Positions 18,695 through 63,186 of a stretch of DNA of 64,000 nucleotides are shown in pieces. How positions within the stretch are numbered: the first letter of the stretch is position 1; every line of letters begins with the position of its first letter. The notes beneath the pieces are model-generated. The model ran no database searches and was not told the origin of the DNA. It saw nothing but the letters and a program-made list of their open reading frames with translations. This DNA is from Sphingomonadales bacterium (GTDB lineage: Bacteria > Pseudomonadota > Alphaproteobacteria > SMXS01). The stretch covers positions 62,001-126,000 of the forward strand of contig JALHLV010000011.1 in the NCBI GenBank assembly GCA_022844405.1. Direction: 5' to 3'. The translations under genes were made by a program, and so were the position numbers.

Positions 18695-22960
<4,266 letters not shown>

Positions 22961-22986: not shown

Positions 22987-23017
22987 GCGCGCGGCTCCGA
23001 AAGGGCCGCGCGCTTTT
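22987..23017. terminator. Rho-independent terminator between rpoC and the TlpA-like gene
   Basis: 9-bp perfect GC stem (22987-22995 gcgcgcggc with 23005-23013 gccgcgcgc), loop tccgaaagg, then tttt on the plus strand. On the minus strand the same hairpin is followed by a shorter T-stretch, so it probably serves both the rpoBC transcript and the convergent TlpA-like gene. Confidence 0.85.
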
Positions 23018-23021
23018 CGTA

Positions 23022-23543
23022 TCAGGGCTTGGCGGTCAGGAAGGTGTTGAGCTCGTCGACCAGCGTCGCCAGCGTCTCGTCGCCATAGCCCACATGGACC
23101 GAGGCGACCTTGCCCTGCTTGTCGATGATGAACATGTGGGGGATGCCCTTCACGCCGAACGCCTTGGCGGCCCGGTATTTGGGGTCGTAGGCGAAGGTGA
23201 GGCTCCAGTCGGGCGTCTTCTCCAGGATCTTCTTGTAGATTTTCCTGCCCTGGCCGTAGTTGACCGCGACGATCGCCAGCCGGTCCTCGCTCACCTGCTC
23301 GCGAATCCCCTGCAGCACCGGCAACTCGCGCAGGCACGGCCCGCACCAGGTCGCCCAGAAAGTCACGACGACCACCTTGCCGCGCTGGGCGCTGGCGAGG
23401 ATGTCGTCGCCGTTCTCGTCCTGGCCGAGATAGTCCGGCGGTACGTCGCCCACCGTTACCTTGGCCTCGGGCTCGCGCTTCGCTTCTGCCGCCGGCGCGG
23501 CGAGCAGCAGGGCTGAAAGCATCAAAATCACAAAACGGACCAT
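23022..23543 (-). CDS. TlpA-like thioredoxin-fold protein (periplasmic disulfide reductase)
   Basis: 173 residues. An N-terminal signal peptide (MVRFVILMLSALLLAAPAAEA, cleavage near 21) exports it to the periplasm. The thioredoxin fold has the active site WCGPC (Cys67, Cys70) and the cis-Pro at 135 in GIPHMF, followed by DKQGKV, as in the TlpA/ResA/AhpC-TSA group that reduces disulfides for cytochrome c maturation or protein repair. ATG at 23543 is preceded by GGAGGC. It runs against rpoC and sits in the gap that separates rpoC from rpsL, an unusual place. The partner is not visible. Confidence 0.88.
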   Translation of the reverse strand: MVRFVILMLSALLLAAPAAEAKREPEAKVTVGDVPPDYLGQDENGDDILASAQRGKVVVVTFWATWCGPCLRELPVLQGIREQVSEDRLAIVAVNYGQGRKIYKKILEKTPDWSLTFAYDPKYRAAKAFGVKGIPHMFIIDKQGKVASVHVGYGDETLATLVDELNTFLTAKP

Positions 23544-23607
23544 CGTTTGCCTCCGAAATCAGGTCTGGTCCCGGCGGACCACTACAGACCGTCCACTCTA
23601 TAATCAT

Positions 23608-23856
23608 TTGTCATCCCGACGAAAGAGCATGTGACGCAATCCAATAAAACGTCGTCATTCCCGCGCACGCGGGAACCCAGATGGTCGTAGAGCGCGTTAG
23701 TGGCCATGGGCTTGGTCCACGAAAAAGTCTTTTCGTTCGATGGAGCGGTTGAACGGTTCTTGCCCTTGCCCCATCTGGGTCCCCGCGTGCGCGGGGATAA
23801 CGAATATTTATTTTGAGATATTGATTTCTTCACACGCTCTTTCGCCGGGATGACAA
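23608..23856. repeat. Palindromic repeat, family B, interrupted by another repeat
   Basis: Outer arms 23608-23634 (begins ttgtcatcccgacgaaag) and 23830-23856 (ends tttcgccgggatgacaa) are 27 nt long and complementary except at 2 positions. Instead of the short spacer seen in the family-B copy at 46132-46216, the arms are 195 nt apart and enclose a second inverted repeat. It lies in the non-coding gap upstream of the TlpA-like gene. Confidence 0.8.
23653..23802. repeat. Inner palindromic repeat nested in a family B element
   Basis: Arms 23653-23684 (cgtcattcccgcgcacgcgg...) and 23771-23802 are complementary over 32 nt with about 4 mismatches, separated by 86 nt. The arms include the 'gggaacccag' block that resembles the inner end of family B arms, so it may be a diverged sister element rather than an unrelated one. 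No ORF is convincing inside. Confidence 0.75.
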
Positions 23857-23868
23857 TGAAGAGAATGG

Positions 23869-24074
23869 TCAATGATGCCCTTGCTCATATTTCGGTAGGT
23901 CGTCGCGGATTTCGAACCAATCGGCTTTCGATTCGGTCCACACATGGCCCGTGATCTCGACGCCATCCGGCGCCTCCATGCCGCCAGGCTGAGATCGCGC
24001 CCTCCCTCGTGGAACCGCCGCAGCATGGCAGCCTTGCGGCGCGCGGATTTAGTCAGCATTTCCGCCGTATTCAC
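23869..24074 (-). pseudogene. Frameshifted small ORF of unknown function
   Basis: On the minus strand the first part (from GTG 24074 or ATG 24059) reads MLTKSARRKAAMLRRFHEGG and continues to about 23980. From there a different frame reads protein-like text starting MEAPDGVEITGHVWTES and ending LPKYEQGHH at a TGA (23869-23871). Joining the two frames near 23980 would give a protein of about 65-68 residues. I infer one small gene broken by a frameshift, though two short overlapping ORFs are possible. I do not recognise the family. It is adjacent to the nested repeats. Confidence 0.4.
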
Positions 24075-24111
24075 GGCTCCGGCGCGGCGCCGGCAATCTG
24101 CGATCTAACGC

Positions 24112-24140
24112 TTGACGGAAGGGCAGGTCGCTCGTATGTT
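24112..24140 (+). promoter_or_regulatory. Promoter of the str operon (rpsL-rpsG-fusA-tuf)
   Basis: CTTGACG with -35 TTGACG at 24112-24117, a 17-nt spacer and -10 TATGTT at 24135-24140, followed by a GC-rich discriminator ccgcgcc. It leaves a leader of about 190 nt before rpsL. The alphaproteobacterial CTTGAC form of the -35 is matched. Confidence 0.65.
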
Positions 24141-24247
24141 CCGCGCCTCTCGAGGGTGCAGGCTGTAGGCCAATTCCTAGACGCTGCGCTGTGACAGTCC
24201 CAGTAGTGGATGTCAGCCTCTTCCGATCACCCCGAGAACAAATCACC

Positions 24248-24311
24248 GGCAGCCGCCAGAGCGGTGGGATGCCGTTGGTTTTTTGCTAGTTGAACGCGGC
24301 ATGTGCCGCGC
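24248..24311 (+). promoter_or_regulatory. Possible attenuator and hairpin in the rpsL leader
   Basis: A bulged stem (24248-24257 pairing with 24262-24275) is followed by six T at 24280-24285, like an intrinsic terminator. A second hairpin, cgcggc/gccgcg (24296-24301/24306-24311), lies 30 nt before rpsL. Together they could provide premature termination or translational feedback (S7 in E. coli acts within the str mRNA). Pairing was done by eye. Confidence 0.4.
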
Positions 24312-24340
24312 CTGTTGAAGATGGACGCCAAAGGGTTCAC

Positions 24341-25194
<854 letters not shown>

Positions 25195-45409: not shown

Positions 45410-46365
45410 CGGGGTTCGACCTGTTCGTGGGCGCCGACTGGTCCGGCGAGCGCGGCCCCAGGGTGAAGCGGCTGCAAGTGGCGGCCTGCGGCGCCGGGCA
45501 GGGCGCGCCGTCGCTGGTCGCCAATCCGTCAGGCGGGGCGTGGACCCGGCCGGGCTTCGCCGCCTGGCTGCTGGCGCGGGCGAGGGAGCGCCGCGTGCTC
45601 TGTGGCCTCGATTTCTCGTTCTGCTTTCCGTGGGAGGACCGGCAGGCCTATTTCCCGGGTTTCGCCGACGATCCGGCGGACCACGCCGGATTCTGGGCGC
45701 TGGTCGAGGCGCTGTGTGTGGCCGATGACGGCCTGTTCGGCGGCGGTCTCGCCGATGTCGAGCCGCTGCATCACCACTTCCGGCGCGGCGCGGTGACCGG
45801 AGCGTGCTACGCCCGCCGTCTGCGGGTGGTCGAGGCGCTGACCGGAGAGCGCGGGTTGGGCGTGCCCGAGTCCGTCTTCAACCTGGTCGGCGCGCGGCAG
45901 GTGGGCAAGGCGTCGCTGTCGGGCATGCGAATGCTGCGGTGGCTGCGTCGGCATGACGGCGTGGCGGTGTGGCCGTTCGACGAAATCGGCGACACGCGGC
46001 TGGTGCTGGTCGAAGCCTTCCCAACCGCCTTCGTGCGCATGGCCGGCGGCGGGTCCGGGAAGGTGAGGGATGGAGAGCGGCTGAACCGGGTGCTGAAGCA
46101 CTTCAGTTCCCGCCCAATTCTCAAAACATCTTGTCATCCCGGCGAAGGCCGGGACCCAGAACGGGGAAGGGACATTGGCCTACGACCACTGGGTCCCGGC
46201 CTTCGCCGGGATGACAGTGTATTTGAGTTCACCGACGATATGACCGATGCGCTTGTCAGCTCGGCGGCGTTGCGCGCCCTCAGTCCGAATCCCTCGCTGT
46301 GGCATCCGCCGGGCTTATCGGATAGGGTCCGCCGCTTCGAAGGCTGGACGTTTGGAATTACCTGA
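45406..46365 (+). CDS. Unrecognised protein (RNase H-like/DUF429-like?) with an in-frame palindromic insertion
   Basis: 319 residues; I do not recognise the family with confidence. The N-terminus LFVGADWSGERG and later LCGLDFSFCFPWED recall DUF429/RNase H-fold proteins, where an early Asp and the GLD segment matter. GTG at 45406 overlaps the rarA stop (GTGA) and the stop overlaps the rluC-like start, so it is embedded in an operon. Residues about 239-275 (SCHPGEGRDPERG ... PLGPGLRRDD) are encoded by a family B palindromic repeat (46132-46216) and look foreign; the protein resumes with DDMTDALVSSAALRAL. The reading frame is intact through the insertion. Confidence 0.7.
   Translation: MTGFDLFVGADWSGERGPRVKRLQVAACGAGQGAPSLVANPSGGAWTRPGFAAWLLARARERRVLCGLDFSFCFPWEDRQAYFPGFADDPADHAGFWALVEALCVADDGLFGGGLADVEPLHHHFRRGAVTGACYARRLRVVEALTGERGLGVPESVFNLVGARQVGKASLSGMRMLRWLRRHDGVAVWPFDEIGDTRLVLVEAFPTAFVRMAGGGSGKVRDGERLNRVLKHFSSRPILKTSCHPGEGRDPERGRDIGLRPLGPGLRRDDSVFEFTDDMTDALVSSAALRALSPNPSLWHPPGLSDRVRRFEGWTFGIT
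46132..46216. repeat. Palindromic repeat, family B, inside a coding region
   Basis: Perfect 28-bp inverted repeat: arms 46132-46159 (tgtcatcccggcgaaggccg...) and 46189-46216, spacer 29 nt. It is the same family as the elements at 23608-23856 and 63008-63186, but here it lies in frame within a gene. Confidence 0.92.
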
Positions 46366-63007: not shown

Positions 63008-63186
63008 TTGTCATCCCGGCGAAAGCCAGGACCCAGTCCCTGTGCAAGCAAAAAACTATCCGTGTCCCTGAGCTTGTCGAAGGGCGTTGCACCAAGGCTG
63101 ATGCAGGGCCCTTCGACAAGCTCAGGGACACGGTAAAGGTTGGAGACTTGCATCGCTGGGTCCCGGCTTTCGTGCCGGGATGACAA
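63008..63186. repeat. Palindromic repeat, family B, interrupted by family A
   Basis: Arms 63008-63036 (ttgtcatcccggcgaaagcc...) and 63156-63186 are complementary except for one mismatch and a 2-nt insertion in the right arm. Their spacer holds a complete family A palindrome. The element lies between the convergent DUF1489 and panC genes and its right arm touches the panC stop codon. Confidence 0.85.
63060..63133. repeat. Palindromic repeat, family A, copy 2
   Basis: Arms 63060-63091 and 63102-63133, 32 nt each, spacer 10 nt, with about two mismatches. Same 74-bp architecture as copy 1 at 1845-1918, with gcttgtcgaa in place of gctcgtcgaa. It is inserted in the spacer of a family B element. 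Confidence 0.9.

What the first reader, a model, noticed from the sequence alone, without database searches (positions are those of the whole stretch)
23608..23856. Repeat nested inside a repeat between rpoC and rpsL
A family B palindrome (outer arms 23608-23634/23830-23856) is split by a second inverted repeat (23653-23684/23771-23802). Such nesting indicates sequential insertion and orders the events: outer first, inner later. Its location in the gap that separates rpoC from rpsL marks this as an insertion-prone spot.
Basis: seen in the sequence. Interest (0 to 1): 0.55.

Follow-up and report, generated by a model that had tools for sequence, protein, structure and literature searches.

The report
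One palindromic repeat, not two insertions
The "repeat inside a repeat" beside a ribosomal gene is one member of a small family of roughly 249-base palindromes that recurs as a unit elsewhere in the same genome, so it is mostly an ordinary bacterial repeat, although related species show that such repeats often differ in content at the same address.

Summary
The inverted repeats are real at the stated coordinates and far above chance. They are not two unrelated repeats. The pairing runs almost unbroken from 23608-23684 to 23771-23856, and the 249 nt fold as one hairpin. The same outer+inner composite sits at 3 further sites of this genome and 1 site of a sister species. Four of these 5 cores form one clade, support 0.992. 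Two searches of 7 genus genomes found the composite-specific outer arm only beside a core, whereas the core alone is common. The site is empty in two sister species. A published precedent exists (PMC3733652). "Outer first, inner later" is unproven here. It may still describe how the composite first arose: at C1:301710 three sister species carry palindromes with the same tips but different interiors. In a related survey, 9 of 18 two-sided shared addresses hold different element types. True nesting exists elsewhere in this genome and looks different.

The parts
23608..23856 (.). composite palindromic element (249 bp)
23608..23641 (+). left outer arm: family-B-like tip TTGTCATCCCGACGAA plus composite-specific part
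23823..23856 (-). right outer arm
23653..23680 (+). left inner CGTC-type REP unit (CGTC, stem-loop, CCAG tail)
23775..23802 (-). right inner CGTC-type REP unit, inverted (head-to-head dimer)
23681..23774 (.). 94-nt spacer between the two inner units, with a small ACGAAAAA/TTTTCGT hairpin in the middle
23022..23543 (-). TlpA/thioredoxin-like gene; its start lies 64 bp from the element
23869..23990 (-). 3' remnant of a GFA-type gene (PF04828, partial match in sister G006); about 150 bp of the 5' part present in G006 are missing here
18752..22960 (+). rpoC
24290..24712 (+). rpsL (ribosomal protein S12)

Best explanation
The 249-bp feature is one non-autonomous palindromic repeat. It is a head-to-head dimer of two CGTC-type REP units (23653-23680 and 23775-23802) whose outer flanks have been extended by a second palindromic layer ending in family-B-like tips. 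Most known copies descend from one composite that spread as a unit to several places in this genome and one known place in a sister species. It landed between the GFA remnant and tlpA after the split from the two relatives that can be checked. Shown: recurrence as a unit, core clade, empty sites, single-hairpin fold. Inferred: it moves as single-stranded or hairpin DNA with help from a trans-acting enzyme or repair pathway not encoded by the element, and it has no dedicated cellular job. At most it acts as a strong hairpin in transcripts entering tlpA from upstream. How the outer layer was first joined to the core is not shown.
For: Near-continuous pairing and one hairpin, z -12.4. Composite copies at C2:65522-65754 (84%), C3:113094-113327 (81%), C1:301710-301946 (82% over its first 193 bases) and G003:C2:494941-495192 (79%); alignment including both outer arms. 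Cores of the window, C2, C1 and G003 copies form a clade with support 0.992 among 31 cores. The outer-arm pattern (<=3 mismatches) was found 4 times in 7 genomes, all inside composites. In the 62-nt right-arm search, hits reaching inward of the tip lay only in the window, C1, C2 and G003 composites. Ten further core loci in this genome without outer arms were inspected, and 31 core-arm matches stand against 0 for the reversed control. Empty sites in G006 and G003. Found in 7 of 7 genus genomes and 0 of 3 other family genomes at E <= 1e-6. CGTC tag, head-to-head dimer, 94-nt spacer, no flanking transposase, as described in PMC3733652 (abstract, sections 6-7 and passages read).
Against: The C3 copy is weakly symmetric outside its core (flank score 16, shuffle p 0.30) and groups with its own orthologues L050/L055, not with the other four composites; those orthologues share only one outer side with it. 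A G006 locus (C109:6080-6260, L198) has a composite-like outer arm on one side of its core only, so outer and inner parts are not always paired. Search sensitivity is limited: one search recovered 4 of the 10 arms of the five composites and one search missed C3. RNAalifold on the five composites gives a slightly unfavourable covariation term (+4.2) and only 6 of 78 pairs with a double change, so hairpin conservation by selection is not supported. No target-site duplication was recognised, and no mover was found. The composite count (4+1) is small.
Confidence: 0.8

Rival explanations
1. Sequential nesting at this locus: a family-B palindrome inserted first and a core element later inserted in its loop.
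For: Outer tips are family-B-like. At C1:301710 sisters hold B-tipped palindromes at the same point without the core: G004 28 bp, G005 69 bp, G006 175 bp. Genuine nesting does occur in this genome: at C1 near 126.1 kb a 222-bp element with CATAGGCGTC-type ends splits the left arm of a B element, with AAGGCC on both sides, and sister G004 has an uninterrupted B at that point.
Against: No outer-only allele seen at the window site; G003 and G006 are empty there. Outer arm seen only beside a core. The composite is repeated and four of its five cores form one clade. The core is nearly central between both arms, unlike the off-centre true nest.
Confidence: 0.12
2. In-place exchange: palindromes persist at an address while their interior is swapped, shortened or inverted by recombination or hairpin-break repair between dispersed copies that share tips. 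The composite would be one of several interiors carried by B-like shells.
For: C1:301710: four species carry four different interiors with the same tips at the same point within a few bases, and G002 and G003 are empty. Types differ at 9 of 18 two-sided shared addresses. One of the 9 (address 14) is explained by the nested insertion, leaving 8, or 7 without locus L260, which was fetched by an address search. Random placement of 89 elements gives on average 0.9 differing addresses for 1918 gaps, 3.4 for 480 and 6.2 for 240. One interior is inverted between G000 and G005.
Against: Repeated independent insertion into a few hundred favoured gaps cannot be excluded: P(>=7) is 0.04 for 480 gaps and 0.44 for 240. 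At several addresses the 10-25 bp next to the tips are not conserved. The element sample was not collected at random. The window address itself shows only empty or occupied.
Confidence: 0.27
3. A functional RNA or terminator: the hairpin was kept because it controls tlpA or insulates rpsL.
For: Very stable hairpin on the strand leading into tlpA; PMC3733652 discusses effects of REPs on neighbouring transcripts (passages read).
Against: Absent in two sisters that keep tlpA. None of the 3 terminator-like sites in 23400-24300 lies inside the element; of 2 promoter-like matches (0.4 expected from shuffles) one, 23829-23857, lies at its right end and is a bare consensus hit. Only Rfam match up to E 1 in 23000-24300: mir-789, 20.4 bits against a gathering score of 100. 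No covariation support.
Confidence: 0.06

Closest known systems
CGTC-tagged REPs, head-to-head dimers (Di Nocera et al. 2013, PMC3733652: abstract, sections 6-7 and passages read)
   Same: CGTC/TGTC tag, short stem-loop, CCA tail, inverted pairs with a 20-100 nt spacer, intergenic, no associated transposase gene
   Different: Here the dimer carries 45 nt (left) and 54 nt (right) of further palindrome outside; the first stem pair is A/C, not A/T
Halothiobacillus neapolitanus CGTC-1 dimers inside 41-bp palindromes (PMC3733652 section 7, read)
   Same: REP dimer regularly enclosed by an outer palindrome that is not found without the REP
   Different: Unrelated outer sequence; there all dimers are enclosed, here 4 of the 14 core loci inspected in the genome
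REPINs / GTAG-REPs with RAYT (PMC3116915, listing and start of abstract only; PMC8049555, passages)
   Same: Inverted pairs of REPs spread as a non-autonomous unit
   Different: No GTAG tag; none of the 7 Y1-transposase genes found in 4 of 7 genomes has these REPs in the roughly 3.3 kb fetched around it
Neisseria dRS3 (CGTC-1 according to PMC3733652 section 6)
   Same: Same superfamily, similar CGTCATTCCC core (dRS3 letters recalled, from no call)
   Different: Different organism and arrangement

Membership tests
CGTC-tagged REP (head-to-head dimer) | CGTC or TGTC tag at the outer end of each unit | tested here: met
   CGTCATTCCC at 23653; the inverted mate at 23775-23802 reads CGTTATCCCC, one base off the tag
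CGTC-tagged REP (head-to-head dimer) | 8-9 bp stem, almost invariably with complementary A/T at positions 1 and 2, 4-5 nt loop, tail fitting CCA | tested here: inconclusive
   ATTCCCGC-GCAC-GCGGGAAC-CCAG: loop 4, tail CCA, 7 of 8 stem pairs; position 1 is A opposite C (read)
CGTC-tagged REP (head-to-head dimer) | units in opposite orientation, mostly 20-100 nt apart | tested here: met
   spacer 94 nt here; 24-119 nt in the 43 A- and B-type units listed
CGTC-tagged REP (head-to-head dimer) | not flanking a tyrosine transposase gene | tested here: met
   7 Y1_Tnp genes, no A or B unit at <=6 mismatches in their loci; G001, G004 and G006 have no Y1_Tnp match
REPIN (GTAG-REP + RAYT) | GTAG tag and RAYT gene flanked by the same REP | tested here: not met
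   tag is CGTC; RAYT loci carry none of these units
MITE derived from an insertion sequence | target-site duplication and matching ends on an autonomous IS | tested here: inconclusive
   no duplication recognisable against the empty sites, which are diverged in the gap; a parent IS was not searched for

The most novel reading that the evidence does not exclude
In this genus CGTC-type palindromes are long-lived addresses whose ends persist while their interiors are exchanged, shortened, inverted or layered between species, without a dedicated transposase. The window composite is a B-like shell that acquired a foreign REP-dimer core and then spread. Breakage of the hairpin and repair from another copy sharing the tips would be the copying mechanism.
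Probability: 0.25. Interest if true: 0.55.

Novelty: new member of a known kind. Interest (0 to 1): 0.3.

Why it matters
The finding itself is an ordinary repeat. The comparison gives two useful things. First, a clear contrast between a true nested insertion (off-centre, short flanking repeat, uninterrupted orthologue) and a symmetric composite that only looks nested. Second, a natural test bed for the open question of how CGTC-REPs, which apparently lack a dedicated transposase (PMC3733652), spread. Family-B arm matches are many in four species including the window's (G000 44, G004 63, G005 41, G006 75) and few in three (G001 1, G002 1, G003 8), and the two genomes with most B arms, G004 and G006, have no Y1 transposase match.

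Tried and rejected
Rejected: a RAYT-driven REPIN; a known Rfam RNA; an intrinsic terminator; hairpin maintained by compensatory change. Gene-context bias was inconclusive: 12 classified loci gave uni 6, conv 4, div 2, against 206/58/55 of 319 neighbouring gene pairs in 400 kb, using a home-made codon score that overlooked the GFA remnant; one of 13 loci was dropped as lying at an edge. The 400-kb sample held no element while the window holds three. The 62-nt outer-arm search reported many hits in positions 37-62 only; these are family-B tips and were not counted as outer arms. Flank symmetry outside the composites reached p <= 0.05 in three other loci (L058 0.035, L052 0.04, L050 0.02) of 43, about what chance gives. 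In the address survey, addresses 3 and 9 were linked by one flank only and were dropped from the 18; the L343 link in address 1 was also one-sided.

Errors made and corrected: the G003 composite was aligned in the wrong orientation; one search has it right. On checking this report, the address count was lowered by one (address 14 is a nested insertion) and the odds of the exchange reading were lowered from 0.30 to 0.27, and of the novel case from 0.28 to 0.25.

Full report
Observation. Longer arms are found by search, 23608-23641/23823-23856 at 88% and 23643-23684/23771-23812 at 86%. These two pairs nearly abut, so there is in effect a single arm pair of 77 and 86 nt with a bulge of about ten bases. 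The 249 nt fold as one hairpin at -139.1 kcal/mol, z = -12.4. The inverted-repeat score exceeds all 30 shuffles of the region. Surroundings: rpoC 18752-22960, a TlpA-like gene on the minus strand 23022-23543, the element, a remnant of a GFA-type gene, then rpsL 24290-24712.

Is it one element or two? A search of the own genome (3.78 Mb, 41 contigs) with the element gives three further copies carrying inner and outer parts: C2:65522-65754 (84%), C3:113094-113327 (81%) and C1:301710-301946. One more is in sister species G003:C2:494941-495192 (79%) (alignments, corrected). The inner part alone is common: 31 arm matches in this genome against 0 for the reversed control, and ten inspected loci without outer arms (L041 among them has its two arms about 400 bp apart). 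The outer arm beyond its family-B-like tip was found 4 times in 7 genus genomes, all in composites. A 62-nt right-arm search reached inward of the tip only in the window, C1, C2 and G003 composites. Both searches miss diverged arms: one search recovered 4 of the 10 arms of the five composites. A one-sided case exists: L198 in G006 has such an arm on one side of its core. In a tree of 31 cores, the cores of the window, C2, C1 and G003 copies form one clade with support 0.992. The C3 core instead groups with its orthologues in G004 and G003, so C3 may have a separate history; a stretch of roughly 10-12 kb present in G003, G004 and G006 is missing next to it. I conclude that the composite is a subfamily that spreads as a unit.

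The site itself. In G006 and G003 the gap upstream of tlpA measures 191 and 137 bp between alignment anchors, where the window has 420 and 366 bp (coordinates; sequences). A scan of the rpoC-rpsL stretch of G002, G003, G004 and G006 found no repeat unit. In G004 tlpA is absent; in G002 a DsbA-like gene lies after rpoC. G001 and G005 gave only matches to the repeat and tell nothing about this site. The insertion is thus specific to the window lineage among those that can be checked. No target duplication can be read because the gap has diverged.

What kind of element. The left inner unit reads CGTC, a 7-of-8 pair stem, a 4-nt loop and a CCAG tail; its inverted mate differs by one base in the tag. 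The two face outward with 94 nt between them. This fits the CGTC-REP head-to-head dimers of Di Nocera et al. 2013 (PMC3733652; abstract, sections 6 and 7 and passages read), except for the first stem pair. Their section 7 describes Halothiobacillus neapolitanus CGTC-1 dimers that all sit inside 41-bp palindromes not found without REPs: a direct precedent for the architecture here. [quoted passage not shown] Here, the seven Y1-transposase genes found in 4 of 7 genomes carry none of these units in their loci, and G004 and G006, richest in family-B arms, have no Y1 match.

Did an outer shell exist first? At C1:301710 the orthologous gap is empty in G002 and G003, holds a 28-bp palindrome in G004, a 69-bp B element in G005, a 175-bp B element with an internal CCCTGAGCTTGTCGAAGGG-type repeat in G006, and the composite in the window genome, with the same tips at the same point within a few bases. 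The simplest account is one ancestral insertion whose interior changed. A wider survey of 91 elements (not randomly collected) gives 20 shared addresses, 18 with both flanks matching; element type differs at 9 of 18. One of the 9 is the true nested insertion described below; without it and without the address-searched locus L260, 7 remain. Random placement of 89 elements gives on average 0.9 differing addresses for 1918 gaps, 3.4 for 480 and 6.2 for 240; P(>=7) is 0.04 at 480 gaps and 0.44 at 240. In-place exchange is therefore favoured only if insertion is not confined to few gaps. One element is inverted between G000 and G005.

Contrast with real nesting. Near C1:126.1 kb a distinct 222-bp element with CATAGGCGTC-type ends interrupts the left arm of a B element, with AAGGCC on both sides; sister G004 has an uninterrupted B element with the same left flank. 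That is what sequential insertion looks like: off-centre, with an uninterrupted relative. The window composite shows neither sign.

Function. The element can put a very stable hairpin into any transcript that enters tlpA from upstream, but it is absent from two sisters that keep tlpA, no terminator-like site was found in it, and the five composites give no covariation support (term +4.2; 6 of 78 pairs with double changes). I regard it as mobile and probably neutral. Whether interior exchange at fixed REP addresses is already in print was checked only with the searches; I saw no such title or abstract start among the rows listed, which for searches were only part of the papers found.

Noticed in passing
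window 46132-46216 and 63009-63186: Two further REP dimers of family B; the second encloses a CCCTGAGCTTGTCGAAGGG-type inverted repeat, a 172-178 bp form that also occurs elsewhere in G000, and in G004 and G006.
   Followed up: partly
window 23869-23990: Remnant of a GFA-type gene whose first part (about 150 bp) is missing compared with sister G006.
   Followed up: partly
L311 from 158 (G000:C1 near 126.1 kb) and L048 (G000:C1 near 298.3 kb): A 222-bp element with CATAGGCGTC-type ends, itself enclosing another GTCATCCCC palindrome, inserted in a family-B element with AAGGCC on both sides and an uninterrupted B in G004; a second copy lies between B-like tips at the other place.
   Followed up: partly
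L319 and L353: The same family-B element lies in opposite orientation in the same gap in G000 and G005.
   Followed up: partly
L198 (G006:C109:6080-6260): A core with a composite-like outer arm on one side only.
   Followed up: no
L030 (G000:C3 near 113.1 kb): Roughly 10-12 kb present in G003, G004 and G006 is missing in the window genome with one end at the composite repeat, suggesting a repeat-linked deletion.
   Followed up: partly
L154-L160: Seven Y1-transposase genes; several have their own inverted ends around GGTGACAGTGCA, unlike the REPs of this genus.
   Followed up: no
   Followed up: no
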